From: Olsenella massiliensis | Lineage (GTDB): Bacteria; Actinomycetota; Coriobacteriia; Coriobacteriales; Atopobiaceae | Reading direction: 5' to 3' | DNA length: 64,000 nt | NCBI RefSeq assembly: GCF_001457795.1 | Contig: NZ_LN898211.1 | Coordinates: 689,038-753,037, forward strand | Part shown: positions 10,647 to 64,000 of the stretch, one piece after another | How positions within the stretch are numbered: the first letter of the stretch is position 1 | Layout: every line of letters begins with the position of its first letter | Notes under the pieces: generated by a model | Databases searched by the model: none | What the model was told of the DNA's origin: nothing | The model's input: the letters and a program-made list of their open reading frames with translations, nothing else | Made by a program: the position numbers and the translations under genes

Positions 10647-10826
10647 CCTCCCGGCGCAAGGGGCCTGGCCCTTGATGCGCGCGGGCGCCAACAGGAGTCA
10701 TCCCCTCGGGCACGTCAGCGTCCCCGGGCCTCGCAAGGGGTCCGGGGACGTCCGCATGACGTCGGGGCGCCCGCCGGCAGGGCCACCTTCCATCCCTGCG
10801 ACATGCTTTGGAACGGAGGAAGAGAC

Positions 10827-11075
10827 GTGCTGAAATACGTGGCCCGCCGCCCGCTTCAGGCCATTCCCGTCCCCTTGGGCCTCTCCATCACCATCTTCTG
10901 GTCGGGCGTCCTCATGATCATCCTCTTTGCGGGCATCCTGCACCTGCTGCCGTCAGGCGGCCGCATCGACCCCATGCTCGCCCTGGTGGGGGCACGGGGC
11001 TCTTTCTGCTTGACACGCTTCTCTCGGGCGACCTCGAGGCCTTCGGCAACGCGGTCCAGCACATCATCATGCCCG
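10827..11075 (+). pseudogene. Remnant of a DppB/OppB-type peptide ABC permease
   Basis: GTG 10827, with GGAGGA at 10815-10820, starts M-L-K-Y-V-A-R-R-x-L-Q-A-I-P, the classic N-terminus of dipeptide permease DppB. After the first helix the frame jumps directly to I-F-W-S-G-V-L-M-I-I-L-F and P-S-G-G-R-I-D, which in intact DppB lie well over 100 residues further on, so an internal part is deleted. Near 10993 the homology moves to another frame, continuing G-L-F-L-L-D-T-L-L-S-G-D-L-E-A-F and H-I-I-M-P. It then stops before the conserved EAA loop. It is a dead gene with a deletion, a frameshift and a lost 3' end. The rest of a dpp operon is absent. Confidence 0.75.
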
Positions 11076-11102
11076 TGCCCGGATGGCTCGTCCGCCGCGC
11101 CG

Positions 11103-11408
11103 CTACGGGAGCGTCGGGTCTGAGTCCTCGTCGCCCACGACCGTGACGGCGAGGGCCGCGTTGTCGCGAGCGGCCCTCAAAAGGACGCGACAGACGTCGT
11201 CGAGCCAGCGGGGCTCGGACGCAGGAGGCCTCCTGCGCAGGACGATGATGTGCGTGGGCGTCACGACGTCACCGAGGCAGTCGGCGAGCGCCGAGAGGTT
11301 CGCCCCGTAGTAGATCGGGAAGCCCAGGCGTCGGGCGAGGTAGGCGTGCAGAGAGGCGGCGTCGGAAACGTCCCTCTCGTCTATGACAAGGCGCTGACGT
11401 CGGGTCAT
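11103..11408 (-). CDS. Barstar-family RNase inhibitor
   Basis: A 101-residue cytoplasmic protein of the barstar fold. The recognisable core is L-H-A-Y-L-A-R-R-L-G-F-P-x-Y-Y-G-A-N-L-S-A-L-A-D-C-L: in barstar this helix and loop (Y-Y-G-x-N-L-D-A-L-W-D) plug the active site of barnase. Its start is 15 bp downstream of the stop of the barnase-like gene, so both are in one operon. It should protect the producer by binding the RNase before export. The aspartate of the canonical N-L-D-A-L is replaced by serine here, so affinity may differ. Confidence 0.85.
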   Translation of the reverse strand: MTRRQRLVIDERDVSDAASLHAYLARRLGFPIYYGANLSALADCLGDVVTPTHIIVLRRRPPASEPRWLDDVCRVLLRAARDNAALAVTVVGDEDSDPTLP

Positions 11409-11423
11409 GGCAGCTCCCCTGCG

Positions 11424-11960
11424 CTAGTACAGGCGCTCGAAGGTCCGGTAGTGGTCGGCGGTGTAGTAGATGAGCCCGTCGTCGGAGAACACGAGGCGCC
11501 GGGCGCCCCGACGGCCGCCGTGGTAGTCGATGTCGCACTCGGTCCACCTGCGCCCTGTGGCGTCGGGAAGCGCGCCGTCGTCGTTGTGGTAGCGCCCGCC
11601 ACCGATGGACATCCCGGGGCAGACCTCGTCGAGGTTGCCTTTGGCGTTGTCCCAGCCGCGCTCCCTCGCCTTGGTCTTGGTGACGAAGTTGCGCGGCAGG
11701 CGCCCAAACTCGTGGACGTAGGCCGCCACCTCGTCCTTGGAGGTGTAGCTGCCGTCCTCGCGAACGACGACGCCCGCGTCGGGCGGGGTCGGGGTCGTCG
11801 TGGCGCGGGGGGAATCTCCTGCGGCGGCCCGCACGTCCGCCCCGCCGCCCAGGGCGGCCCTCCACGCCATCGCACGAGGGCCCACGATGACGGCCGCGAC
11901 GACGATGATCGTCGCGAGGACCGAGAGCGCCTGCGAGAGCTTGTCCGACCTGGTGTTCAT
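11424..11960 (-). CDS. Secreted barnase-type ribonuclease
   Basis: A 178-residue protein: short basic N-terminus, a hydrophobic signal or anchor segment (about residues 10-31), a Thr/Pro-rich linker (about 46-62), then a microbial RNase domain. The domain reads L-P-x-N-F-V-T-K-x-x-A-x-x-x-G-W, K-G-N-L-D-E-V-C-P-G-x-S-I-G-G, then T-E-C-D-I-D-Y, G-G-R-R-G-A-R-R-L-V-F-S-D and T-A-D-H-Y-R-T-F. The general-base glutamate (barnase E73), the catalytic arginines (R83/R87) and the histidine (H102) all have counterparts, so it should be active. It lies between pth2 and barstar on the minus strand. A role in competition or nutrient scavenging is inferred. Confidence 0.88.
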   Translation of the reverse strand: MNTRSDKLSQALSVLATIIVVAAVIVGPRAMAWRAALGGGADVRAAAGDSPRATTTPTPPDAGVVVREDGSYTSKDEVAAYVHEFGRLPRNFVTKTKARERGWDNAKGNLDEVCPGMSIGGGRYHNDDGALPDATGRRWTECDIDYHGGRRGARRLVFSDDGLIYYTADHYRTFERLY

Positions 11961-11994
11961 AGGGCCAGTATAGGCATCTTGGACCGCCTGCTCG

Positions 11995-12435
11995 CTAGTA
12001 CAGCGGCAGGTCCTTGGTGAGGGGGTCTATGTCCTCTGCGCGCAGGGGCTCAAACGCCAGGCAGGTGTAGGTGGGCTCGCCATGGAACTCGGTCAGCCCC
12101 GCGTCGCGTACGAGCGCGACGACAAGCCCGCGCCTGCGACCCTCGTCCGCCAGGGCCAGGAGCTCCTCCTCGGAGTCGACGTACACGCAGACCTTGGCGA
12201 CGCCCGCGTCAAACCAGTCATAGAGCGCGGTGTGCCGTCGTGCGGCATCGGCCAGGTAGGCCCGCCCACCGTCGTCGCTCGCGCGCAGCTGGTCCTGGCG
12301 CCCCTCCTTCACCAGGGCGAGGAGCACCGCCTCGACGCAGGCGTGACCGGCTTGGGCGGCAATCTTTCCCTTGCGCATCCTGAGGTCCCGCCGCATGACG
12401 ATCATCTGCTTGGCCTTGTAGGACGAGACGCCCAT
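11995..12435 (-). CDS. Pth2-type peptidyl-tRNA hydrolase family protein
   Basis: A 146-residue protein beginning with the Pth2 signature K-Q-M-I-V-M-R-R-D-L-R-M-R-K-G-K-I-A-A-Q, then A-G-H-A. Later it has V-R-D-A-G-L-T-E-F and P-T-Y-T-C-L-A-F-E-P, the usual A-G-x-T and T-x-L-A-x-x-P elements. Pth2 releases peptides from peptidyl-tRNA and is typical of archaea and eukaryotes; bacteria normally use the unrelated Pth1. Two further differences are a central insertion relative to the roughly 115-residue core (about residues 40-70) and G-L-V-V in the mid region, so a divergent substrate is possible. It is followed 34 bp later by the barnase gene. Confidence 0.8.
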   Translation of the reverse strand: MGVSSYKAKQMIVMRRDLRMRKGKIAAQAGHACVEAVLLALVKEGRQDQLRASDDGGRAYLADAARRHTALYDWFDAGVAKVCVYVDSEEELLALADEGRRRGLVVALVRDAGLTEFHGEPTYTCLAFEPLRAEDIDPLTKDLPLY

Positions 12436-12531
12436 GCTTCCTCCCCCAAACGCTCGTGCGACGTATTGCCGGGCGCGACCCCGCGCCTGCGGCGGCCGGG
12501 CCCGTCTTTGCCCGCGTCGCGACGGATGGCC

Positions 12532-12960
12532 CTACTTGGCCTCGAGCAGCTCGATCGTGAAGTTGAGCGCCTTGCCGGCCATCTCGTGGTTGAGGTCAAG
12601 GTGCAGCGTCGTCGGCGTCACCCTGCTGACGCGGGCGGGCACAGGGGCGCCCTGGGGCGAGCGCAGCATCAGCTGCGTGCCCACCGTGACCCCGCGCAGG
12701 TTCTCGGGCACCTCGGACATCGGGACCTCCTGCACGAGCTCCTCGCGCCGCTCGCCATAGGCGTCCTGGGGCTCCAGGCGAATCGTGACGGTGTCACCGA
12801 CGGCCATGTCCCTGACCGCGCGGTCAAAGCCGGGAATCATCTGCCCGGCCATGCAGGTGAACGCCAGGGGCTCGCCCCGGTCGAGCGACGAGTCGAACTT
12901 GGTGCCGTCGTCGAGCGTGCCGGTGTAGTGGACCTTGACCTTCTTGCCTTCGTTGCTCAT
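12532..12960 (-). CDS. FKBP-type peptidyl-prolyl cis-trans isomerase, SlyD-like
   Basis: A 142-residue cytoplasmic isomerase/chaperone. The start M-S-N-E-G-K-K-V-K-V-H-Y-T-G-T-L is the usual SlyD-type beginning. The FKBP core continues D-G-T-K-F-D-S-S and M-I-P-G-F-D-R-A-V, and the insert-in-flap domain spans about residues 60-120. An AGGAGAG ribosome site precedes the start on the minus strand. The reading frame is open much further upstream (to 13380), but that extension overlaps the ABC transporter gene and is low-complexity. The histidine-rich metal tail of E. coli SlyD is absent. It may be co-transcribed with the pth2 and barnase genes downstream. Confidence 0.9.
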   Translation of the reverse strand: MSNEGKKVKVHYTGTLDDGTKFDSSLDRGEPLAFTCMAGQMIPGFDRAVRDMAVGDTVTIRLEPQDAYGERREELVQEVPMSEVPENLRGVTVGTQLMLRSPQGAPVPARVSRVTPTTLHLDLNHEMAGKALNFTIELLEAK

Positions 12961-13120
12961 GCTAAAGCTCTCCTGTCCCGTTGCTGCGGCCGGCGTGATG
13001 GACGCGTGGCTCGGGAGGGTGCGCGAGACCCACGAACGCGGCCGTTTGTTACGCTTTGTGGCACAACGATTATGCCTTGCCTCGTCACGGGGGGCAAGCG
13101 AGGGGTGACGCGGTGAGGCG

Positions 13121-14929
13121 ATGATACGGAAGAGACTCTTTGACCTGGCGCCCGACGCGCTGCGACACGCCTTGCTCGCGGCGGGCGCGAGCTGGCTGGG
13201 CCTGGTGTCGGACGTCGTGCTGGCCGGGGCCCTCGCCCGTGCGCTGGCCGACCTTTCCTGCGGCGCCGGGGCCGCCTTCGTGCCGCTGGCGCTCGTGGCG
13301 GGCCTGGCGGCCCTGCCCCTCAGGGTGCTCGCCGTCAAACGCGCCTCGGCGGAGGGATGGGCCGCCTCGCGCGAGGCCAAGCGCTCCCTCAGGCATCGTC
13401 TGCACGAGAAGCTTCTGGTCGTGGGGCCGGGCTACGACGCCCAGGTGTCCACGGCCAAGGTCGTGCAGCTTGCCGTCGAGGGCTGCGAACAGCTTGAGGC
13501 CTACTTCGGCAAGTATCTTCCCCAGCTCGCCTTCTCGCTGCTGGCGCCCCCCACGCTCGTCGTGGCGCTGGTGGCCCTGGAGGGCGCGACCTGGCCGGCG
13601 GCGCTCACGCTGCTTGCGTGCGTGCCGCTCATCCCCCTGACCATCATGGCCACGCAGAAGGTTGCCCGTCGCCTGCTCGGCGCATACTGGGACGAGTACG
13701 TCACTCTGGGCGACTCCTTCCTCGAGAATCTCCAGGGCCTCACGACGCTCAAGATCTACCAGGCCGACGCGGCGCGCCATGAGGCCATGGACGCCGAGTC
13801 CGAGCGCTTCAGGGTCGTGACGATGAGGGTGCTGCGCATGCAGCTCAACTCCATCATCGTCATGGACGTCATGGCCCTGGGCGGCGCCGCCCTGGGCATC
13901 GCCGTGGCGCTCGGCCTCCTCTCCGCAGGCTCCGTCAGTCTCTTTGGCGCGCTTCTGGTGGCGCTGCTGTCGGCCGACTTCTTTTTGCCCCTGCGCGCGC
14001 TGGGCTCCCACTTCCACGTGGCCATGAACGGCCTGGCCGCCGCCGACGCCATGTTTGCGGTGCTCGACCTCCCCGAGCCGTCAGGTGGCGGCACCGCCGA
14101 CCCCGCGCCGGGGGACCATCTGCGCATGAGCCACGTGGACTTCTCGTGGGACGGCGAGCGGGAGGTCCTTCACGACGTGTCCATCGACGTGCCGTCCGTG
14201 GGGCTCACCGCCCTCGTCGGCGCCTCGGGGTCGGGCAAGTCCACCATCGCGTCCCTGCTGAGAGGCGCGGTCGCGCCCATGGGAGGCACGGTGCTGCTGG
14301 GCGGCCGTCCCCTGTCGGACTACCGTGCGCAGAGCCTTGCGCGCTATGTGACCCTGGTGCCCAGCTCAAGCTACCTCTTTGCTGGCACGGTGCGCGACAA
14401 CCTGCTCATGGGCGACCCCGACGCGCCCGACGACGACCTGTGGCAGGTCCTGGCGAGCGTGCGGCTTGACGGGTACCTGCGCGCTCGCGAGGGCCTTGAC
14501 ACCGTCGTCGAGGCTCAGGGGGAGAGCCTCTCGGGAGGTCAGCGCCAGCGCCTGGCCCTGGCTCGGGCGCTCCTGCGCAACTCTCCCGTCTACATCCTCG
14601 ACGAGGCGACGAGCAACATCGACGTCGAAAGCGAGGAGGCCATCATGGCGGCGGTGCGCTCCGTCGCGCGCTACAAGGCGGTCGTCCTCATCAGCCACCG
14701 CCTGTCCAACGTGACGAAGGCTCGCGAGGTCCACGTGCTTGACGGCGGTCGGGTGGTGGGCGCGGGCAGCCATGAGCGGCTGCTGGCGGACAGTGACGAC
14801 TATCGTGCCCTGTGGGAGGCCCAGCGGGCGCTCGAGAACTTCACGCCGCGCGCTCGCGCGGGGCGCGTCGCCTTCGGGCCCGCAGGCCCGATTGACCCTG
14901 AGGAGGCCGGTGATGCGGACGCGGAGTAA
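13121..14929 (+). CDS. ABC exporter subunit, CydD-like
   Basis: A 602-residue half-transporter with an N-terminal membrane domain (about residues 1-310, five to six hydrophobic segments) and a C-terminal ATPase (about 330-565). It has Walker A G-A-S-G-S-G-K-S-T, signature L-S-G-G-Q-R-Q and Walker B V-Y-I-L-D-E-A-T-S-N-I-D. The segment G-A-Y-W-D-E-Y-V-T-L-G-D-S-F-L-E-N-L-Q-G-L-T-T-L-K resembles the coupling region of CydD, which with CydC exports thiols (glutathione/cysteine) for cytochrome bd assembly. No cydAB genes are in the window, so a related exporter is possible. It overlaps the next gene by 17 bp and both form one operon. Confidence 0.78.
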   Translation: MIRKRLFDLAPDALRHALLAAGASWLGLVSDVVLAGALARALADLSCGAGAAFVPLALVAGLAALPLRVLAVKRASAEGWAASREAKRSLRHRLHEKLLVVGPGYDAQVSTAKVVQLAVEGCEQLEAYFGKYLPQLAFSLLAPPTLVVALVALEGATWPAALTLLACVPLIPLTIMATQKVARRLLGAYWDEYVTLGDSFLENLQGLTTLKIYQADAARHEAMDAESERFRVVTMRVLRMQLNSIIVMDVMALGGAALGIAVALGLLSAGSVSLFGALLVALLSADFFLPLRALGSHFHVAMNGLAAADAMFAVLDLPEPSGGGTADPAPGDHLRMSHVDFSWDGEREVLHDVSIDVPSVGLTALVGASGSGKSTIASLLRGAVAPMGGTVLLGGRPLSDYRAQSLARYVTLVPSSSYLFAGTVRDNLLMGDPDAPDDDLWQVLASVRLDGYLRAREGLDTVVEAQGESLSGGQRQRLALARALLRNSPVYILDEATSNIDVESEEAIMAAVRSVARYKAVVLISHRLSNVTKAREVHVLDGGRVVGAGSHERLLADSDDYRALWEAQRALENFTPRARAGRVAFGPAGPIDPEEAGDADAE

Positions 14930-16583
14930 CGCCTGGGTCATGTGGCGCCTGTTGGGGCTGACGCGCCCGCTGGCGGGCGTGATGGCCCTGTCCGTCATCT
15001 GCGGCGTGGCGGGCCATTGCTGCGCCATCCTCATCCCCGCCCTCGCGGTGGCCGAGGCCCTCTCGCTCGCGGGGGTGACGGCAGGCGCGTGGCCCGCGCT
15101 CTCGCCAGGCGCCTGCGCGGCCGTCCTGGCGGGCCTGGGCGTCCTGCGCGGGGTGCTGCACTACCTCGAGCAGACCTGCAACCACTACATCGCGTTCAAG
15201 CTTCTGGCCCAGGTGCGCAGCCAGGTCTTTGCCAGCCTGCGACGTCTGAGTCCCGCCAAGCTCGCGGGGGCGGACAAGGGCAGCATCATCTCGACGGTCA
15301 CCGCGGACATAGAGCTTCTGGAGGTGTTCTTTGCCCACACCGTCTCGCCGGTCGGCATCGCGACGCTCACCTGCGCCGTCATGGTGCGCCTCATAGGAGG
15401 CCTCGCCTGGCAGCTGGGCGTGGTGGCTGCCGTGGGCTACCTGCTGGTGGGCGTCGCGGTGCCCCTGGCCGTCTCGCGCGCCTGCGCCCCTGCCGGCGTC
15501 GCCTCGCGAGCCCAGGCGGCCGCCCTGTCAACCTACGTGCTCGACGGTCTGCGCGGCCTTGCCGAGGTGCTGCAGTTTGGCGCCGCGGAGACGCGCCTGG
15601 ACGGCCTGGACGAGAGGTCCGAGGGCCTTGCGCAGACCCAGCGACGGCTCGCCGCGGGCGCCTCGACGGGCGCGGCCGTCACCCAGGCCCTCGTCGCGGT
15701 CCTGTCTTTGACCACGCTCGTCGTGGGGGCGGCGCTGTGGGGCGCCTCGTCCATCGACGCTCCCTCGGCCGTCCTCGCCACCGTGCTCCAGCTCAGCTCG
15801 TTTGGCCCGGTCATCGCCCTGGCCAACCTGGGCGGCGGGCTTCAGGGCACCCTCGCCTCCGCCCGCCGCGTCATCGACCTGTTGGACGAGGAGCCTCAGG
15901 TCGAGGAGGTCCTGGAGGGTGACGACATAGCGTTTGAGGGCGCCGCCATGAAGAACGTGAGCTTTGCCTACGACGAGGAGCGGGTCCTTGACAACGTGTC
16001 GCTGAGCGTGCCCGTGGGCGGCATCGTGGGAATCACGGGCGCGAGCGGCTCGGGCAAGTCAACGCTCTGCCGACTCCTGATGCGCTTCTGGGACGTCACC
16101 CGCGGCCAGGTGTCCATCAGCGCCCAGCGCATCGACACCATCCGCACCGACCGCCTGAGGGAGCTTGAGTCCCTCGTCGAGCAGGACACCTACCTCTTTC
16201 ACGGCAGCATCAAAGACAACCTGCTCATCGCGCGACCGGACGCCAGCCAAGGACAGCTCGAGGAGGCCTGTCGCGCCGCCTCGGTGCACGACTTCATCAT
16301 GAGCCTGCCGCGGGGCTACGACACGCCCGTCGGCGAGCTGGGCGACACGCTCTCGGGTGGGGAGCGCCAGCGCCTGGGGCTGGCGCGCGCGTTTCTCCAC
16401 GACGCCCCCTTCCTCATCCTGGACGAGCCCACGAGCAACCTCGACGCGCTCAACGAGGGCGTGATCCTGCGCAGCCTCGACGAGCAGCGCGGCAGGCGTA
16501 CGGTGCTGGTGGTGAGCCACCGCGCGAGCACCATGGCCGTGGCGGACGCGAGCCTCTCCATGGACCGGGGCAGGATGAGCTGA
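14913..16583 (+). CDS. ABC exporter subunit, CydC-like
   Basis: A 556-residue partner half-transporter. ATG 14913 is chosen because AGGAGG lies at 14901-14906; the frame is open further upstream within the preceding gene. The membrane domain (about residues 1-310) is followed by an ATPase with G-A-S-G-S-G-K-S-T, L-S-G-G-E-R-Q and F-L-I-L-D-E-P-T-S-N-L-D. Both halves have complete nucleotide-binding motifs, so the heterodimer should have two competent sites. Assignment to CydC rests on pairing with the CydD-like gene and on general exporter similarity, so the substrate is uncertain. Confidence 0.75.
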   Translation: MRTRSNAWVMWRLLGLTRPLAGVMALSVICGVAGHCCAILIPALAVAEALSLAGVTAGAWPALSPGACAAVLAGLGVLRGVLHYLEQTCNHYIAFKLLAQVRSQVFASLRRLSPAKLAGADKGSIISTVTADIELLEVFFAHTVSPVGIATLTCAVMVRLIGGLAWQLGVVAAVGYLLVGVAVPLAVSRACAPAGVASRAQAAALSTYVLDGLRGLAEVLQFGAAETRLDGLDERSEGLAQTQRRLAAGASTGAAVTQALVAVLSLTTLVVGAALWGASSIDAPSAVLATVLQLSSFGPVIALANLGGGLQGTLASARRVIDLLDEEPQVEEVLEGDDIAFEGAAMKNVSFAYDEERVLDNVSLSVPVGGIVGITGASGSGKSTLCRLLMRFWDVTRGQVSISAQRIDTIRTDRLRELESLVEQDTYLFHGSIKDNLLIARPDASQGQLEEACRAASVHDFIMSLPRGYDTPVGELGDTLSGGERQRLGLARAFLHDAPFLILDEPTSNLDALNEGVILRSLDEQRGRRTVLVVSHRASTMAVADASLSMDRGRMS

Positions 16584-55400: not shown

Positions 55401-55670
55401 GCGCCTGCGACGGCACATACCAGCCTCATTTTACTATGACGGCCAGAGAGGCGCGGGACGATCGACGCTTTTACACGGCATATGACGACGGGAATGTCCG
55501 TGACGGCCGGTGCCGCCCATGGCATGTGGCGACCCTGCCGCTTGCCGGAGCTTGCCGAGAGCTTTCACGGCCCTCATGGGCAACTGATATTTCCCTGACG
55601 TGCGTCACCTACAGTGGGCCAGGAACATGGCTCCTGGGCGGGCTCATTGGCGACGGCGGAGGTTCACACG

Positions 55671-56378
55671 ATGCACGAGACGTACGAGGCGCAGGTTGAC
55701 TTTGAGGGATTTCGCGAGCTGTACCTGGCTCAGCACGGGGGCTACCTCAAGAGGCTGTTCGCGCTGGCGGGCGGCCTGTGCCTGCTCGTCTCCCTCCTGT
55801 GCTGGGTCATCGTCATCGGCGAGCCGGACCCCGTCGCGACCCTCATCGCCCTTGGCTTCACGGCCCTGACGATCGCCTGCATCGCGGGGGCCGTCCACCC
55901 CATGGTGGCGTTCTTTACGCGCAAGGGGGTCGTGTACGACTGGTTCGCGTCGCACGGCCGCCCCAGCCCCTCCGACACCCGCCTGCAGGACCTGCGCACC
56001 TCCTATCAGGTGAGCCTTGAGGACGAGGGCTTCCAGGAGCGTGCCACCGGGTCAAGCAGCCGCATTCCCTGGTTTGCCCTCAAACCCAGGCCCATCAAGG
56101 GAAGGCGGGGCACCTACTTTGCGCGCGCCAACGGCAAGGAGGGCTCGGTGGCCTACAACCTCATCGGCATCAACTGGGCCTTCAGGGACGAGAGCGTGGA
56201 GGGCGTCCTCTTCGTGCCCGCTGCGGTGAGCGCCGCGCATCCTGGCCTGGTGGAGGCCATCGAGGGCAAGATCAACGACGGCCGCGCGCGCTTCCGCGGC
56301 AGGGGCGCCCGCACGGCCCGCCCGTCGGACCAGGCGACCGTGGACTGGATGCGCGGGACGCCGCAGGACCGTCCCTAA
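55671..56378 (+). CDS. Hypothetical membrane protein, two helices plus soluble domain
   Basis: A 235-residue protein of unknown function. Two adjacent hydrophobic helices (about residues 28-70) with a short connecting loop are followed by a cytoplasmic domain with alternating strands, ending in a basic tail (F-R-G-R-G-A-R). The outline resembles YcxB/PH-like membrane proteins and the protein at 1911-2519, but no family signature is firm. ATG 55671 is chosen with GGAGG at 55658-55662. It is 71 bp before the kinase gene and may be expressed with it. Confidence 0.6.
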   Translation: MHETYEAQVDFEGFRELYLAQHGGYLKRLFALAGGLCLLVSLLCWVIVIGEPDPVATLIALGFTALTIACIAGAVHPMVAFFTRKGVVYDWFASHGRPSPSDTRLQDLRTSYQVSLEDEGFQERATGSSSRIPWFALKPRPIKGRRGTYFARANGKEGSVAYNLIGINWAFRDESVEGVLFVPAAVSAAHPGLVEAIEGKINDGRARFRGRGARTARPSDQATVDWMRGTPQDRP

Positions 56379-56449: not shown

Positions 56450-58228
56450 GTGGCGATGCCCGCAGGACAGGAATCGCAACGGGCCGAAGAGGAGTCGGCG
56501 ACCGACGGCCACCGGCTGGTGGGCGGGCGCTACCAGCTGCTCACGAAGATCGGCGAGGGCGGCATGTCCGTCGTCTACCTGGCGCTCGACAAGGTGCTCA
56601 ACAAGGAGTGGGCGGCCAAGGAGATTCGCCACGTGGACGACCCCGTCCAGAGGGAGCTGGTCGTCAAGGGCATCGTGACCGAGGCCAACATGATCAAGCG
56701 CTTCGACCACCCCGCCATCCCACGCATCGTGGACATCATCGACGACGCGGGCACGCTCTACGTCATCCTGGACTACGTGGAGGGGCGGACGCTCGCCGAG
56801 ATTCTCGAGAAGGGCGGCCCCCAGGCCGAGGACGCCGTCGCCAACTGGGCCATCCAGCTCTGTGACGTCCTGCAGTATCTGCACCGGCTCGACCCGCCCG
56901 TCATCTATCGTGACATGAAGCCCTCCAACGTGATGCTCAAATCCAACGGCCTCGTCGAGCTCATAGACTTTGGCATCTCGGGCGAGCTCGCCGGCGCCGA
57001 CGAGCATCCTGGCGAGCAGGATGACGCGGTGCGGCTGGGGACGCGCGGCTTTGCCCCGCCCGAGCAGTACGAGGGCGGGCGGGGGACCGACTCCCGCTCG
57101 GACGTGTATGCGCTGGGCGCCACGATGTACTGCCTCCTCACGGGCAAGAGCCCAAGCGACTATGCCGACGCGACGCCGCCGCTGCGCCAGGTGCGCCCGG
57201 AGCTCTCCGAGGGCATGGAGAAGGTCGTCGCCAAGGCCATGCAGGCCGATCCCGACGACCGCTACCCCGACTGCGCCGAGATGGCCTACGCCATCGAGCA
57301 CCGCGGCGAACGCGAGCGTCAGGAGCGTGCCAAGATGCTGCGCACCTGGCGCGGCTTCATAGGGCTCGCCGCCGCGTCGCTGGCGTCGCTCGTGCTGGGC
57401 GTGAGCGCCACCATCGGCAGGATCGTGGTGACGGACGGCGACTACAACCACTGGATGCAGGTGGGGGAGCAGAGCGCCAGCGTCAGCGAGGCGACGGCGG
57501 CCTACCGGCGGGCGGCGCAGGTCAAGCCCGGCGAGGTGGGACCCTACCTGGGGATGGTCAGCCGCTATCAGGAGGACCAGACCTTCTCGCGCGTTGAGGA
57601 GGAGGAGTTCAGGTCCACGATCCTGCCCAACCTCGAGCAGGTCAGCTCCTCGGGTCGCTATGCCGAGCTCGCCTTTGCCGTGGGCAAGCTCTATTGGTAC
57701 GAGTACGGCGTCGATGCTGCCGAGGTCGCCGAGCCCGGTCGGGAGACCCAGATCGCGGGGCGCTCCGCCCGCATACGCGCCGCGGCGCAGTGGATGGACG
57801 CGGCGGCGCGCGACCAGTCGTTCGCCGAGCATGACGCCGCCCAGGTGTACAGCTCCATCGCGTCGTTCAACACGGACATCGTGCCAAGCATCAACGAGGG
57901 CTCCGACCTGGGCAGCTATGCGCCGTACTTCCAGACGCTCAGGGACCTCGTGAGCTTTGTCTCAGACGAGTCAAACGACGTCATGCGCCTGGACGTCGCG
58001 AACCTGACGCTTGACGCGCTCTCCACCTACCCGCGCAAGTTCAGGGCTGACGGCGTCTCCAAGCAGGACATCCTTGACCTCGCGCACGACGCCGCCACCC
58101 TGGCGCGCGAGAGCGGGTCCACGACGAGCCTCCTCGACCACGAGCGAGCGCGGGCCCTGGGAACGGCGGACGAGATGGGGCCCATCGTGGAGGACGCCTT
58201 CATTGACGCGAGGACGGTGAGGCAATGA
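56450..58228 (+). CDS. Transmembrane Hanks-type Ser/Thr protein kinase
   Basis: A 592-residue receptor-like kinase. The cytoplasmic kinase domain (about 27-290) has the glycine loop I-G-E-G-G-M-S-V-V, ATP lysine K57, catalytic Y-R-D-M-K-P-S-N (D155), D-F-G (173-175) and G-T-R-G-F-A-P-P-E, so it should be active. A membrane helix (about 302-323) leads to a ~270-residue extracellular domain rich in helices. It lacks PASTA repeats and looks TPR-like, which is inference. GTG 56450 has AAAGGAGA at 56435-56442. The stop overlaps the next start (ATGA), linking it to the TTxL-motif protein. Confidence 0.9.
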   Translation: MAMPAGQESQRAEEESATDGHRLVGGRYQLLTKIGEGGMSVVYLALDKVLNKEWAAKEIRHVDDPVQRELVVKGIVTEANMIKRFDHPAIPRIVDIIDDAGTLYVILDYVEGRTLAEILEKGGPQAEDAVANWAIQLCDVLQYLHRLDPPVIYRDMKPSNVMLKSNGLVELIDFGISGELAGADEHPGEQDDAVRLGTRGFAPPEQYEGGRGTDSRSDVYALGATMYCLLTGKSPSDYADATPPLRQVRPELSEGMEKVVAKAMQADPDDRYPDCAEMAYAIEHRGERERQERAKMLRTWRGFIGLAAASLASLVLGVSATIGRIVVTDGDYNHWMQVGEQSASVSEATAAYRRAAQVKPGEVGPYLGMVSRYQEDQTFSRVEEEEFRSTILPNLEQVSSSGRYAELAFAVGKLYWYEYGVDAAEVAEPGRETQIAGRSARIRAAAQWMDAAARDQSFAEHDAAQVYSSIASFNTDIVPSINEGSDLGSYAPYFQTLRDLVSFVSDESNDVMRLDVANLTLDALSTYPRKFRADGVSKQDILDLAHDAATLARESGSTTSLLDHERARALGTADEMGPIVEDAFIDARTVRQ

Positions 58229-58812
58229 GCGCCGAGACGCTGGGGCTGATCGAGGCCGCCGGGTACGCCCTGGCAATCGTGTTGGCGGTGAGCTGTGCCG
58301 TCTACCATCGCCTCCGTCACGTGAGCGAGGTCCGTCGCTATCTGACGGGCGAGACGGCGCGCTCCGCGATAGAGGACCTGCGCTCCGGCGCCGTCATGCG
58401 CATGACCTCCGGCGCCCAGGCTCGCCTTGGCACGCAGGCCGAGGGACTGGGGCAGGACAGCGGCAGCCTTCACGTGCGGTCCCTTGCACGCGGCGCGCAC
58501 GAGGATGGGCGCGACGCCCCCGGCTCGGCGACGCGCGTGGTCGTGGCGGACGAGGCGCTCACGACCCTTCTTTCCGAAGGTCCCTCAGACGGCGGGCGGG
58601 AGCCTGGCGACGCCCCCATGACGACGCCGCTGGGCGCCGACGCCCCCTGTTTGCCCACGCGCGGCGCATCTGACGACGACGTGGCGCCCTGCGCGCCGGA
58701 GGCGATGACGACGCGGCTCGCGACACCCAAGACGCCCGCCGAGGCGCCGGGGCACGACCGGCACGACGAGGCCATGACCACGCCGCTTGGTGACAGAAAG
58801 AGTGAGCGATGA
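58225..58812 (+). CDS. Single-pass membrane protein with four (D/E)-x-x-T-T-x-L motifs
   Basis: A 195-residue protein of no known family. One N-terminal membrane helix (about residues 8-27) is followed by a long, probably disordered tail. Four short motifs recur in the tail: D-E-A-L-T-T-L-L (109-116), D-A-P-M-T-T-P-L (129-136), E-A-M-T-T-R-L (159-165) and D-E-A-M-T-T-P-L (181-188). Acidic residues before paired threonines recall the phospho-threonine sites recognised by FHA domains. The gene is coupled by ATGA overlaps to the kinase before it and the secreted protein after it, so it is a good candidate kinase substrate or adaptor. This function is inference. Confidence 0.75.
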   Translation: MSAETLGLIEAAGYALAIVLAVSCAVYHRLRHVSEVRRYLTGETARSAIEDLRSGAVMRMTSGAQARLGTQAEGLGQDSGSLHVRSLARGAHEDGRDAPGSATRVVVADEALTTLLSEGPSDGGREPGDAPMTTPLGADAPCLPTRGASDDDVAPCAPEAMTTRLATPKTPAEAPGHDRHDEAMTTPLGDRKSER

Positions 58813-61529
58813 GCGTGAACGAGCATTCCCAGGGGTCCCCTGTTGGCATCCCGCGCCTGCCTCGGGCGCTGCGCGCCGTGACCGTCTCGGTCACGCTGGG
58901 CGCCCTCGTGTGGTCCCCCCTCGTCGCTGCGGCCTCCCCGGCGCTCGCCGCGTCGCCTGCGGCCAAGGGTGTGGACGCCACGACTCCCGCGGACGAGGCG
59001 GCGACCCTACCGGTGATTCCCGTGGCCGCGCCCGCGACCCCCGTCGTCCCGGCGACCCCCGCCCCCGCCACGCCCGCGGAGGATCCCGGGCAGGTTCGGC
59101 CGTCGTTTGGCGTTGACGGCGCGCGCGTGCGCGCCGTGCCCTACGGCGTCAACCTCGCCGACTGGCTCAACGCCCAGGACGACCTGTACCTTGACGGGAG
59201 CCTGTCGGGCGCCTCCCCGCACATGCGGGCCGTCGACGTCGCGTGGCGCTACTTCTTCGCCAGGGGGCCCCTCACCCTGGCCCCCACGCTTGCCGCCTAC
59301 CCCGTCGCGATGCCGGGCGTGACTCCCTCGTCATGCCTCGCCTGGGAGTCTCCCACTACCGCGTCGCTCCCCGACCTGTCCGGCCTCGACGCCGTCGTGG
59401 CCCTGCCCGCGCCGCCCTCGTCGGCGGCCGACGTGGCGGCGGCGCCTCCCCAGGTCCTGGGGATGCTGCGCGTGATCCGGCCCGACGGCTCTTCTCATGA
59501 GCCCGTCGTCACCGGGAGCCTCGAGGACGGCAACCTCAAGCTCTGGCTCTGCGGCCAGGACCAGGAGGGGGGCTCCGCCCGTCTGGCCCCCCAATGGGCA
59601 CCGGGTGTGGCGGATGAGCTCTCGTCCTCCTATGCACTCGAGTCGGACGGCTCGCTCGTCGCGGCGGCGCCCGCTGACGGGCTTCCCGTGACGGGCGCCA
59701 CATCGTGCTTCGTGAAGATCGGCCATGTGCCCGACCCGGTGGGCGACGTCACGTACTGGGAGGGACAGCTGCTGCGCGTGGACCTTGCCAGCGACAGGCT
59801 CGCGCCAGAGCTCGACCGGGCGACGGCGACGCTGACCAAGGCTGACGGCGGCGCGCTTACGGCCCCCTCGGCCCCGGGTCCCTTGGTGGTGGGCGCGCAG
59901 GGCGTCATCCTCACCGTGCCCGTGCGCGAGGCCGCCCCGACGCTTCCCGGTGACGTCGCGTCGGGACTGGACGCCTCGAAGGTGCGCCTGGACCTTGCGG
60001 GCAGGAGCCTCGAGCCTCGGTCCGTGACGAATGACGGAAAGGCGGTCTTCGTCCTGTCCGCAGACACGATCGGCACGGGCGAGACGCGCCTTGACACCGC
60101 TCGCATCCGTGCGTCCGACGTCGCCGGCAACGAGTCGAGCGCGCCTGTCAGCGAGCTTGCGGCCGTGAGCGCGCTCAAGGCGACCACGCTGCGCGTCATG
60201 GACGACAGCCGGCCCACCTGCACGCTGGCGGCCAAGGACCGCAGGGGCAGAACGGTGGCCGACGGCGGCGCCACCGAGCTCGAGCCCGTCTTGACGCGGC
60301 TGGTCATCCATGACCCCAACCTGGCCGAGCTGCGCAAGGACGGCACCTGGCGGGCCAGCGGCTCCCTCAAGGTGACCGTGGACGGCGTCGAGCGCGTCGT
60401 TGACCCCGCCAGGCTGCGGCGCGTCGCGGGCGATGACGACTCGTTCTACCTTGACCTCGACCGCCTGCGGACTGAGGGCAAACACACGGTGAGCGTGAGC
60501 TACGTGGGCGCGAGCGTCCTTCACGCCAACCTGAGGCCCCAGTCCGCCCAGGCGAACCTCTCGTTCACGATCGACCTGCACCCGCCCGTCGCCTCCGGCC
60601 TCCGCGTGGAGGGCGGCGTGGACGCGACTTCCGTCGCCGCCGTGCCGGACGTGGGGAAGGTGCTGGTGGGGGGCGAACGCAGGCTCTACGTCACCGTGAC
60701 TGACGAGACGGCGGGAGGTCCCAGCCCCTCGGGCGTGAAGTCCGTCAGGGCCACCCTCGTGCGGCATGAGCGTCCCGGCGACGCCGGCATGCCGGTTGAC
60801 CTCGGCAGGCTGCCCAAAAGGAAGGGCGAGTTCGAGCTTGACCTGTCAAGCCCGGGCCGCTATGACCTCAAGGACGTCGTCCTGACGCTCGAGGATTGGG
60901 CGGGAAACCGCTCGACGGTCCCCCTGTCGACGGTGAGCACGCAGCAGGGAGGGCCGCTCGACTTGGCGGCCGTGCTGGTGGACGCGCGGCGTCGCGCGTC
61001 GCTCGTCGTCCTGCCCGGCGAGGCCGGTCCCGTGCTCAACGACCAGTTCTACCCTGCGGACTCCCTCGTCGCCCTGGACGTGGTCGACCTCTGGCTCGGC
61101 TACGTGGCGCTCATGCCCTCCTTCCCGGCGACCTTCACGGGAACGCACGTCACGGCGTCCGGCACGAGCGACCTCGCGCCGAGCGTCCTGTCCCTGACGC
61201 CCCGCCAGGTCGCCCCTGACGCGTTTCGGCTTGACTTGGGGCTTCCTCGCACGGACGGCAGGCTGGCCGACGGCTGGTACCGCATCGACTGTTCGTGTCT
61301 GCCCGACGTCTGGGGCGACGTCCCCACGCTGAGCTTTGGCGTTGACACCACGGCGCCCCAGCTCACCGCCGCCACCGTGGCGCGCGACGGCTCCGTTGTG
61401 GCCCCCCTGCCCGACGGGCGCTCGGTCCTGGTGGGCGGCACGCGCCGGATTCGCGTGCGGGTGCAGGACCTCCTTGCCCAGGAGGCCCAGAAACCCCACG
61501 CGTGTCGTACGCACCCTGGTCCGTGCTGA
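58809..61529 (+). CDS. Very large secreted Ig-like-domain protein, N-terminal part (frame broken)
   Basis: The first 906 codons of a large exported protein. ATG 58809 overlaps the previous stop. A signal peptide (basic region then hydrophobic residues about 22-47, ending A-S-P-A-L-A-A) precedes an Ala/Pro/Thr linker (about 48-95). The rest is beta-rich with repeated boundaries such as D-L-H-P-P-V-A and V-D-T-T-A-P-Q-L-T, typical of bacterial Ig-like repeats. The last ~15 residues, after L-L-A-Q-E-A, come from non-native sequence at an assembly junction; the true gene continues at about 61669 in another frame. Probably a surface structural or adhesive protein linked to the kinase operon. Confidence 0.75.
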   Translation: MSVNEHSQGSPVGIPRLPRALRAVTVSVTLGALVWSPLVAAASPALAASPAAKGVDATTPADEAATLPVIPVAAPATPVVPATPAPATPAEDPGQVRPSFGVDGARVRAVPYGVNLADWLNAQDDLYLDGSLSGASPHMRAVDVAWRYFFARGPLTLAPTLAAYPVAMPGVTPSSCLAWESPTTASLPDLSGLDAVVALPAPPSSAADVAAAPPQVLGMLRVIRPDGSSHEPVVTGSLEDGNLKLWLCGQDQEGGSARLAPQWAPGVADELSSSYALESDGSLVAAAPADGLPVTGATSCFVKIGHVPDPVGDVTYWEGQLLRVDLASDRLAPELDRATATLTKADGGALTAPSAPGPLVVGAQGVILTVPVREAAPTLPGDVASGLDASKVRLDLAGRSLEPRSVTNDGKAVFVLSADTIGTGETRLDTARIRASDVAGNESSAPVSELAAVSALKATTLRVMDDSRPTCTLAAKDRRGRTVADGGATELEPVLTRLVIHDPNLAELRKDGTWRASGSLKVTVDGVERVVDPARLRRVAGDDDSFYLDLDRLRTEGKHTVSVSYVGASVLHANLRPQSAQANLSFTIDLHPPVASGLRVEGGVDATSVAAVPDVGKVLVGGERRLYVTVTDETAGGPSPSGVKSVRATLVRHERPGDAGMPVDLGRLPKRKGEFELDLSSPGRYDLKDVVLTLEDWAGNRSTVPLSTVSTQQGGPLDLAAVLVDARRRASLVVLPGEAGPVLNDQFYPADSLVALDVVDLWLGYVALMPSFPATFTGTHVTASGTSDLAPSVLSLTPRQVAPDAFRLDLGLPRTDGRLADGWYRIDCSCLPDVWGDVPTLSFGVDTTAPQLTAATVARDGSVVAPLPDGRSVLVGGTRRIRVRVQDLLAQEAQKPHACRTHPGPC

Positions 61530-61668
61530 GGATCCTCACGCCGTCCTTGTAGGGAAAGGCGACGGCGCACAGCGGGCTCAAGGACCAGGCGCGCCCCCCC
61601 CCCCCCCCCTCCACCCCGCCCGCCCCCCCGCCCCCCGCCCCCGCCCCGCCGGCGCCGGCGCCGCGGGC
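61484..61668. other. Chimeric, C-rich junction splitting the large secreted protein gene
   Basis: After 61483 the frame loses its sense. A ~110-bp piece follows that reads as protein only on the minus strand (A-V-A-F-P-Y-K-D-G-V-R-I-L). Then comes a run of 16 C (61594-61609) and further impure C tracts to about 61650. Poly-C here equals poly-G on the other strand, a known two-colour Illumina artefact. TGTAGGGAAAG (61549-61559) also matches adapter sequence. Confidence 0.7.
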
Positions 61669-64000
61669 GTCGACGTGGCGAGCGAGGATCACAGCTCGGG
61701 CTTGGACGCGGGCTCCGTCACCGTGAGCCTCACGCGCCAGGCGGGCATGGGCGCCCAGGCCGACCGGTCAGAGGAGACGCGCAGCCTCGCGGTAGACGGC
61801 GAGGGCTGGGCCACGATCGACCTGGAAGGCGAGGGGCTCTACCGCCTGGACGACATCAAGGTCTCGGCGCGGGACCGCTACGGCAACCGCCTGGCGAGCC
61901 GCACGCTGGCAGACTATCGCGACGCCCTGCCCGAGCAGGAGCGCTCCGCCTGGGGATTCGACAGCATCCTGGTTGACCTGGGAAGCGCGGCGAGCGTCCG
62001 GACGCGGCTCGAGGACGATGAGGCGACGCCGCCCTCCGCGAAGCCCTACTACCATCGCGGCGAGGTCAGGGAGCGCGTGCTCGTGACGGACCCGTGGTTT
62101 CCCGTGTACGCGTCGCTCGCGTCGGGCGCCCCGCTCGTGACGGGCACGCTCAGCGTCCCGGGAGCCTCCGCCCCCGAGACGCTCTCGCTGTCCGTGCTGC
62201 CCCGCGACTTCACGCCCGTGGAGGGCGCCGAGAACGTGTGGGAGAGCGTCGTGAGCCTCCCGCGCGCCGACGGCGGCAAGCTCCCGCGCGAGGGTGACTA
62301 CACGCTCAGATGCGAGTACGGCGGCGTCCGCAGCAAGGTGCTGGGCGACGATCCCCATACGGACGAGCAGTCCTTTGGGGTGGACTACACTGCCCCCGAC
62401 CTGGGGAGCCTCACGTTCTCGCAGACGTCGCCCTTCCCCGTGCGCGAGTCGGGCGACAAGCGAGGGACGCCCTGGGGCTGGGTGTTCTCTCCGGACGGCG
62501 AGCAGGTGACGCTTGCGGTGACGGACCGGCTGTCGGGCGTCGTGGGAGAGGGCCTCTCGCTCGCCTCCCATCCCACGGGCAACGTCGCGCTGACGTTCGA
62601 GCCAGACGCCGCGGGCGGGCTCTCTCATGAGTCCGACCCGCTGGCGGGCGTCGCCTCCTTCTCGCTTTCGCAGGACGGGCAGCGCGTCGTCCTGGCGGGG
62701 TCCGCCATCACGGCCGTGGACGCGGCCGGCAACGCCGCGACCGTCGACCTCGCCGCCCTGGGGTCAAATCTTCCCGCCGACGCCCTGGGCGTGGCCGTAG
62801 ACACCGAGGCGCCGGTGGTGTCCGTCTCGTATGACAACGACGACGTCCGCAACGGCCGGTACTTCAACGCCAGGCGCACCGCAACGGTGACGGTCCAGGA
62901 CGCCAGCTTTGACCTCACGAAGGAGTTTGCGCCCGAGACCGTCGTCGCGTCGGGCTTCAAAGACGGCTCACAACATGCGGGCAGGACGCTTGCGGCCAAG
63001 GACTTCGAGCCGATCACGCAAGAGGACGGCACCGTCGTCTACGTGGCGACGCTCCCCTTTGACGAGGACGGCGACTGGCGCCTGTCGACCGGCTACACCG
63101 ACCCTGCAGGCCATGCCTCCAACGCGACGAACGACGAGTTCACCATCGACACGGAGGCGCCCAGGCTCCAGGTGAGCTTTGACAACAACGACGTGTCCAA
63201 CGCCATGTACTACAAGGCGCCCCGCACGGCCACCATCACGGTGGATGACAGGAACTTCGCGCCCCAGCTGGGCAGCATCGACGCCAGCGCCCTCCAGGCG
63301 GGCCCGGGACCCTCCGTCGGCGCCTGGTCTGAGACGCGCCCGCGCGCCACCTGGGTCGCCACGGCCTCCTTCGCTGGCGAGACGCACTATCGCCTCAAGG
63401 TGGTCGTGAGCGACCTCGCGGGCAACGTGAGCGAGGCCTATGACTCCCAGGAGTTCGTCATCGACCTGACGGCTCCCGAGGTGGCCATAACGGGCGTCCA
63501 GGACCATCACGCCTACGGCGGCGAGGCCGCCGCCGGGGCCACCTTCAAGGACACCAACCTTGACGCGCAGCTTTCCGACTACACGCTCGCGAGCGTCCGC
63601 GACGAGTACGCCTTCTGGCCGGGCAAGCAGGAGTCCGCCACTGCGACCGAGAAGGTCGTGAGCCTGGGCGACGTCCCCTACGAGAGCCCGCGAGACGACG
63701 TCTACACCCTCAAGGCGACGGCCGTCGATCTGGCCGGTAACCACGCCGAGACCCAGGCGACCTACTCCGTCAACCGCTTTGGGTCCACCTACTTCTTCGC
63801 CGACGGGTCCAAGGGGGTCCCCGGCGCGTTCATGGCCGCGCCGCAGGAGGTCGACGTGGTGGAGGTCAACGTGAGCGGCCTTGACACCTCGGGATCGAGG
63901 GTGCGCCTCTCGCAGGACGATCGCGCTCGCACGCTGTCGCCCGACGTCGACTACAGCCTGGAGGCCAACGCCCCGGACGCGGGCTGGAGCTCCACGACCT
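61669..64000 (+). CDS. Large secreted Ig-like-domain protein, continuation (partial, runs off the window)
   Basis: An open frame of 777 codons from about 61669 (V-D-V-A-S-E-D-H) to the window end, with no start codon of its own and no stop. It continues the style of the preceding frame: acidic, beta-rich modules separated by D-Y-T-A-P-D-L, D-T-E-A-P-V-V-S-V-S-Y-D-N-D-D-V, D-T-E-A-P-R-L-Q-V-S-F-D-N-N-D-V and D-L-T-A-P-E-V-A-I. Two modules share S-(Y/F)-D-N-(D/N)-D-V-x-N and R-T-A-T-(V/I)-T-V. It is most likely the same gene as 58809-61529, giving a protein above 1650 residues. The C-terminus and anchoring signal lie beyond the window. Confidence 0.75.

What the first reader, a model, noticed from the sequence alone, without database searches (positions are those of the whole stretch)
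56450..64000. Coupled operon: membrane kinase, TTxL-motif membrane protein and giant secreted protein
The three genes overlap by ATGA at both junctions. The middle protein is unassignable and has four copies of an acidic-x-x-T-T-x-L motif in a disordered cytoplasmic tail, which resembles phospho-threonine sites read by FHA domains. A sensing kinase, a multi-site substrate or adaptor and a giant surface protein could form a signalling or surface-display system that has not been described. The function is inference.
Basis: partly seen in the sequence, partly recalled or inferred. Interest (0 to 1): 0.75.

Follow-up and report, generated by a model that had tools for sequence, protein, structure and literature searches.

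The report
Type VII secretion operon with phospho-docking tail
The three coupled genes are the front half of a recently described but experimentally unstudied protein-export machine (type VII secretion, subtype d) of gut bacteria, and the repeated "TTxL" motif in the middle protein is strongly conserved and looks like a row of phosphorylation sites that the machine's own FHA domains could read to switch it on.

Summary
In detail: three + strand genes joined by ATGA overlaps, the middle one with four T-T-x-L copies in a low-complexity tail. Reading past the window end shows what they are. Next come a WXG100 protein, an FHA-FtsK EssC-type ATPase, a DUF6382-FHA protein (ATGA-coupled) and a YukD-like protein. 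This is the T7SSd type VII secretion system of Garrett et al. 2024 (PMC11217815): TsdD kinase, TsdH, TsdI, TsdA, TsdC. So the system is known. The motif in TsdH is not mentioned in that paper's main text. I find it conserved: 12 TsdH orthologues carry 2-12 copies of [S/D]-E-x-x-T-(T)-[L/V]-L; when Thr is not required, 42 of 43 such sites have it. A second clade keeps one degenerate copy. The motif resembles the peptide DLPpTVVEI of TssL, bound by Fha in the Agrobacterium type VI system. Most TsdC and all readable TsdJ FHA domains keep phosphothreonine-binding residues; 14 related loci carry a PP2C gene directly before the kinase. Best reading: TsdD phosphorylates TsdH and FHA domains of TsdC/TsdJ dock there. 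Conservation is shown; phosphorylation and binding are inferred. TsdB- and TsdJ-like genes occur in most Coriobacteriia loci, contrary to the published description.

The parts
56450..58228 (+). tsdD: membrane Ser/Thr kinase, 592 aa; kinase domain residues 28-271, one TM helix, helical extracytoplasmic C-terminal half
   Evidence: Pfam Pkinase 8e-43; AF2 model with PknB as best fold match; conserved catalytic residues in A3
57359..57415 (+). TM helix of TsdD
   Evidence: hydropathy maximum at residues 304-322
58225..58812 (+). tsdH: 195-aa single-TM protein with low-complexity, probably cytoplasmic tail
   Evidence: ORF; orthologues between tsdD and tsdI in relatives; no Pfam or NCBIfam family
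58246..58302 (+). N-terminal TM helix of TsdH
   Evidence: hydropathy maximum at residues 8-26
58561..58572 (+). motif copy 1, DEAL-TTLL
58621..58632 (+). motif copy 2, DAPM-TTPL
58708..58719 (+). motif copy 3, PEAM-TTRL
58777..58788 (+). motif copy 4, DEAM-TTPL
58809..61493 (+). tsdI, first part: signal peptide and N-terminal region of the giant envelope protein
   Evidence: homologous to TsdI residues 102-901 of L012; hydrophobic N-terminus
61494..61668 (+). break in tsdI: frame shift, long C run, no homology to orthologues; probable assembly error
   Evidence: tblastn with the L012 orthologue
61669..64000 (+). tsdI, second part (Ig-like repeats), continuing past the window to L007:9625 with a C-terminal TM helix
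   Evidence: homologous to L012 TsdI residues 905-1872; Pfam Big_13 3e-14

Best explanation
The three genes are tsdD-tsdH-tsdI, the first part of a T7SSd type VII secretion locus that continues with tsdA (WXG100), tsdC (FHA-FtsK ATPase), a tsdJ-like gene (DUF6382-FHA), effector and WXG100 genes and a tsdB-like gene (YukD/ubiquitin fold). TsdI is the envelope-spanning Ig-like component. TsdH is a membrane-anchored multi-site docking protein: TsdD phosphorylates the threonine (most likely the first Thr) of each [S/D]-E-x-x-T-T-[L/V]-L motif on the TsdH tail. The FHA domain of the ATPase TsdC and/or of TsdJ then binds the phosphothreonines, gathering ATPase subunits at the membrane complex and turning secretion on, much as PpkA-TssL-Fha does in the type VI system. 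A PP2C phosphatase (linked in many relatives; only the single genomic PP2C of the PknB-type locus here) would reset it. Shown: gene identity, order, conservation of the motif and of its threonine, and FHA domains with intact binding residues. Inferred: phosphorylation, who reads it, and that docking activates secretion.
For: Locus identity: FHA and FtsK_SpoIIIE domains, NCBIfam EssC 4e-243 above cut-off, WXG100 3e-21; architecture matches the published T7SSd of O. uli. Motif: multi-copy in 12 TsdH orthologues from several Coriobacteriia lineages, including C. stercoris, C. tanakaei and O. uli (O. uli identified by its chromosome length of 2,051,896 bp); shuffle tests; 42 of 43 sites carry Thr when Thr is not required, against 10% Thr in the tails; a scan of all fetched loci for two or more strict copies per ORF found only TsdH. 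Readers: R, S, H and N of the phosphothreonine site present in most TsdC, and GR plus SxxH in every TsdJ whose FHA could be read. Eraser: PP2C gene directly upstream of tsdD in 14 distinct loci. Register: Agrobacterium Fha binds DLPpTVVEI of TssL (PMC3953482), close to the TsdH repeats S-E-x-P-T-V-V of L028.
Against: No phosphorylation data. TsdC of L021 and L100 has lost the phosphothreonine-binding Arg although their TsdH tails carry 4 to 6 motifs, so TsdC cannot be the only reader. A clade of 19 TsdC, mostly Atopobiaceae-type MAGs, has short tails with only one degenerate motif where TsdH could be read. The genome has two more kinases, at its PknA/PknB-type locus, that could be the writer. 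TssL peptides bind Fha only with about millimolar affinity (PMC3953482).
Confidence: 0.66

Rival explanations
1. T7SSd as above, but the TsdH motif is not a phospho-site: it is a short linear docking motif (acidic residue plus Thr and hydrophobic residues) that binds a component directly, and the FHA domains bind other partners, as the FHA domains of T7SSb EssC bind the EssB pseudokinase without phosphate.
For: In T7SSb the FHA domains bind EssB without phosphothreonine (PMC11217815). Some TsdC FHA domains here lost the phosphate-binding Arg. The hydrophobic +2/+3 positions are also well conserved.
Against: Thr at position 0 is 42 of 43 with no Ser substitution, as expected for FHA readers, which prefer pThr; the kinase keeps its catalytic residues; PP2C linkage.
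Confidence: 0.17
2. The motifs are phosphorylated by TsdD but serve as a charge switch or kinase feedback site (for example TsdH as an inhibitor released on phosphorylation); the FHA domains mainly read phosphorylated TsdD itself.
For: tsdD and tsdH are translationally coupled; bacterial kinases commonly autophosphorylate and recruit FHA proteins (general knowledge).
Against: The hydrophobic +2/+3 residues are strongly kept, which a pure charge switch would not need; resemblance to the TssL-Fha peptide.
Confidence: 0.12
3. The three genes form a signalling or surface-display operon unrelated to secretion.
For: Only the view inside the window, where no secretion gene is visible.
Against: The next genes are WXG100 and an EssC-type ATPase, and this order recurs in relatives.
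Confidence: 0.03

Closest known systems
T7SSd (TsdA, C, D, H, I) of Olsenella uli, Garrett et al. 2024, PMC11217815
   Same: Same five components in the same order; kinase-TM, single-TM protein with short unstructured tail, signal-peptide/Ig-like/TM giant, WXG100, FHA-FtsK ATPase
   Different: The main text describes no TsdH motif, reports no ubiquitin-like gene at any T7SSd locus and lists TsxJ and the PPM phosphatase for other subtypes only; here B- and J-like genes are found in most Coriobacteriia T7SSd loci, O. uli included, and a PP2C gene in 14
T7SSe of Bacillota (TseA, A2, B, C, D, F, H, I, J, K)
   Same: The Coriobacteriia loci carry counterparts of A, B, C, D, H, I, J, of a second WXG100 and, in a subset, of F
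   Different: Host phylum; TseH tails were not examined here; orthology of A2 and K was not established
Threonine phosphorylation pathway of type VI secretion (PpkA-TssL-Fha, Agrobacterium), PMC3953482
   Same: Membrane kinase, phosphorylated membrane component with D-x-P-T-V-V site, FHA reader; works-like analogy
   Different: Different secretion machine, no known homology of TssL to TsdH; single site instead of 2-12 copies; experimentally shown there, inferred here
T7SSb EssB/YukC-EssC
   Same: Kinase-fold membrane protein next to an FHA-FtsK ATPase
   Different: EssB is a pseudokinase and EssC FHA domains lack the phosphothreonine site (PMC11217815); TsdD keeps catalytic residues

Membership tests
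T7SSd | EssC/EccC-type ATPase with N-terminal FHA domain | tested here: met
   FHA and FtsK_SpoIIIE in Pfam; NCBIfam EssC 809.9 bits over cut-off 778.4
T7SSd | Phosphothreonine-binding residues conserved in the TsdC FHA domain | tested here: met
   GR, SERH, GSGNG in the window genome's TsdC; most relatives alike, L021, L100 and L016 not
T7SSd | WXG100 protein TsdA beside tsdC | tested here: met
   L007:9721-10014, WXG100 E 2e-21
T7SSd | Membrane Ser/Thr kinase TsdD with helical extracytoplasmic part | tested here: met
   Pkinase 8e-43, TM helix, helical C-terminal half in the AF2 model
T7SSd | TsdH: single TM helix and short unstructured cytoplasmic region | tested here: met
   One hydrophobic stretch at residues 8-26 and a low-complexity tail; topology and disorder not measured
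T7SSd | TsdI: giant protein with signal peptide, Ig-like domains and C-terminal TM | tested here: met
   Big_13 hits, N- and C-terminal hydrophobic segments; frame broken in this assembly
T7SSd | No ubiquitin-like protein (as published) | tested here: not met
   B-like gene at L008:63-341 and in 36 of 39 TsdC-clade loci; ubiquitin fold by AF2, EccD ubiquitin-like domain Z 10.6; YukD Pfam in 5 of 11 relatives. O. uli, the type example, also has it, so I read this as an incomplete published description, not as non-membership
T7SSe | Found in Bacillota; encodes B, F, J, A2, K in addition | tested here: inconclusive
   Host is Coriobacteriia; B and J present here and PP2C absent from this locus, present in 14 related loci; A2 and K orthology not tested
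Type VI threonine phosphorylation pathway | Kinase-dependent phosphorylation of a membrane component and FHA binding shown biochemically | not testable with these tools
   Only sequence resemblance of the sites

The most novel reading that the evidence does not exclude
T7SSd is a phospho-switched type VII secretion system in which TsdH is a multivalent phosphothreonine scaffold: several FHA docking sites per tail collect subunits of the FHA-bearing ATPase (and TsdJ), so that kinase and phosphatase set assembly of the secretion machine by multi-site phosphorylation.
Probability: 0.5. Interest if true: 0.7.

Novelty: new member of a known kind. Interest (0 to 1): 0.5.

Why it matters
No T7SSd component has an experimentally assigned function in the papers I could search. 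A conserved, repeated Thr motif beside a kinase, FHA readers and, in relatives, a phosphatase turns the published suggestion 'perhaps regulated by phosphorylation' into named residues that can be mutated. It also corrects the parts list: ubiquitin-like and DUF6382-FHA genes belong to most Coriobacteriia loci, including O. uli, so T7SSd and T7SSe differ less than described.

Tried and rejected
Free-standing signalling operon: rejected once the sequence beyond the window showed WXG100 and EssC genes. Chance origin of the motif: rejected by shuffles and orthologues. Motif-bearing TseH in Bacillota: a relaxed motif scan of the Bacillota loci fetched found no candidate, but tseH was not located there, so this is no evidence of absence. 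A phylum-wide search for further T7SSd (Bifidobacterium) gave mostly distant EccC/EssC; Bifidobacterium TsdH was not examined. Similarity of the TsdD extracellular half to EssB: kinase matches filled the fold-search list, so this stays open. No solved-structure sequence match for the B family. No TsdC relatives in viral contigs. A second, stand-alone B-like gene in two same-genus genomes has no T7SSd genes within the flanks read.

Full report
WHAT IS THERE. The window is G000:C13:689038-753037 of a 1.8-Mb draft genome. Genes at 56450-58228, 58225-58812 and 58809-onward overlap by ATGA at both junctions. The first is a Ser/Thr kinase with one TM helix. The second is a 195-aa protein with one N-terminal TM helix and a low-complexity tail holding four T-T-x-L sites. 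The third is a giant protein with a signal peptide, Ig-like repeats and a C-terminal TM helix. Four TTxL sites are far above shuffles of the same tail (mean 0.23, 0 of 2000 shuffles reach 4).

WHAT LIES BEYOND THE WINDOW. Reading on (L007 = C13:744000-763999, L008 = C13:764000-772000; L007 position = window position minus 54962) shows tsdA, a WXG100 protein (L007:9721-10014); an EssC-type ATPase with an FHA domain (10101-14714); a DUF6382-FHA protein coupled to it by ATGA (14711-16003); a second WXG100 protein and a 483-aa protein with an LXG-like N-terminus by eye; and a YukD-like protein (L008:63-341). This is the type VII secretion subtype T7SSd named by Garrett, Higginson and Palmer in 2024 for Olsenella uli: TsdD, TsdH, TsdI, TsdA, TsdC (PMC11217815). 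So the 'undescribed system' is a known but, as far as I could find, experimentally unstudied one.

IS THE MOTIF CONSERVED? Thirty TsdC loci came from one species-level genome scan, and 48 of 396 sampled Coriobacteriia genomes have a TsdC match. A single-TM ORF lies between tsdD and tsdI in the loci where both neighbours could be read. Twelve TsdH proteins carry 2-12 repeats: for example SEAGTTLL-type x3 in an Olsenella MAG (L012), SEAGTTLL, SELGTTLL, SEAGTTLL, SEEHTTLL in Collinsella stercoris (L019), DEAGTTLL-type x6 in L100, SE-x-P-T-x-V x8 in L028 and SE-x-P/A-T-x-V-L in the Collinsella tanakaei-type genome (L124; its TsdC is in L030). Pooled, 62 sites show S or D at -4 (55 of 62), E at -3, T at 0, L or V at +2 and L at +3; the -4 position was not used in the selection. 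When Thr is not required by the pattern, 42 of 43 sites have Thr at position 0; the tails contain 10% Thr. On a TsdC tree the repeats occur in early and late branches, and a derived clade of 19 TsdC goes with short tails that keep at most one or two degenerate D/E-x-x-T-x-V sites where TsdH could be read.

WHO WRITES, READS AND ERASES. TsdD keeps the catalytic residues across its family; its best fold matches are PknB kinases. The FHA domain of this genome's TsdC has the canonical Arg, Ser, His and Asn, as do most relatives; L021, L100 and L016 lost some of them. Every TsdJ whose FHA domain could be extracted keeps GR and SxxH. The genome has three Ser/Thr kinases (two at a PknA/PknB-type locus), one PP2C phosphatase at that same locus, and six FHA matches. 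In 14 distinct related loci a PP2C gene sits directly upstream of tsdD, often overlapping it. The resemblance to the Agrobacterium type VI system, in which PpkA phosphorylates TssL on Thr14 and Fha binds DLPpTVVEI, is close: acidic at -3, T at 0, hydrophobic at +1/+2 (PMC3953482). This makes the first Thr of TT the likelier phosphosite.

CORRECTION TO THE PUBLISHED PARTS LIST. The 2024 paper reports no ubiquitin-like gene at any T7SSd locus and none by BLAST elsewhere in the genome. Here a B-like gene was found in 36 of the 39 TsdC-clade loci on the tree (counted by hand). In the genome whose length equals that of O. uli DSM 7084 (2,051,896 bp) B and J lie about 24 kb from tsdC. Within the window's genus, the three genomes with a TsdC match have B and the two without lack it. 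Evidence that B is YukD-like: alignment, Pfam YukD in 5 of 11 members, best 2e-7, the window genome's own copy none, and an AF2 model of ubiquitin fold (pLDDT 85) matching EccD ubiquitin-like domains.

MECHANISM. Best reading: TsdH is a membrane-anchored docking tail; TsdD phosphorylates its Thr sites; FHA domains of TsdC and/or TsdJ bind; the ATPase is gathered and secretion starts; PP2C resets. Shown: identity, order, conservation. Inferred: every biochemical step. Probability about two in three.

CAVEATS. Relatives are partly metagenome assemblies. The tsdI frame is broken in this assembly across window 61494-61668, next to a long C run; orthologues are intact, so I take it for an assembly error, but a real mutation is not excluded. 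The supplementary files of PMC11217815 could not be read, so a mention of the motif there is not excluded.

Noticed in passing
window 61494-61668: About 175 bp in tsdI without homology to orthologues, holding a long C run and a frame shift: probable assembly error in this draft genome.
   Followed up: partly
L008:670-978 and L007:18082-18390: 309 bp, 99.7% identical, present twice a few kb apart, with an undetermined base nearby: local misassembly or recent duplication.
   Followed up: no
window 55614-56378: 254-aa membrane protein directly upstream of tsdD, no Pfam or NCBIfam family, homologues upstream of tsdD in L012 and L073 only.
   Followed up: partly
L013:2492-3927, L015:9302-10797, L024:9188-10717: Two extra FHA-type proteins encoded between tsdI and tsdC in three related loci.
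   Followed up: no
G178:C1:2549415-2549687 and G169:C20:70270-70542: Second, stand-alone copy of the YukD-like gene (71-73% identical to the window genome's) with no other T7SSd gene in the flanks read.
   Followed up: partly
L032: TsdC-like ATPase (31% identity) on a contig labelled Candidatus Saccharibacteria, outside the phyla named for type VII variants in PMC11217815.
   Followed up: no
L007:16737-18188: 483-aa candidate effector with a helical, LXG-like N-terminus and a glycine-rich hydrophobic C-terminal half, next to a second WXG100 gene; no Pfam family.
   Followed up: no
L022:19599-22684: A second PP2C-kinase gene pair downstream of the T7SSd locus, suggesting a further kinase-phosphatase module.
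   Followed up: no
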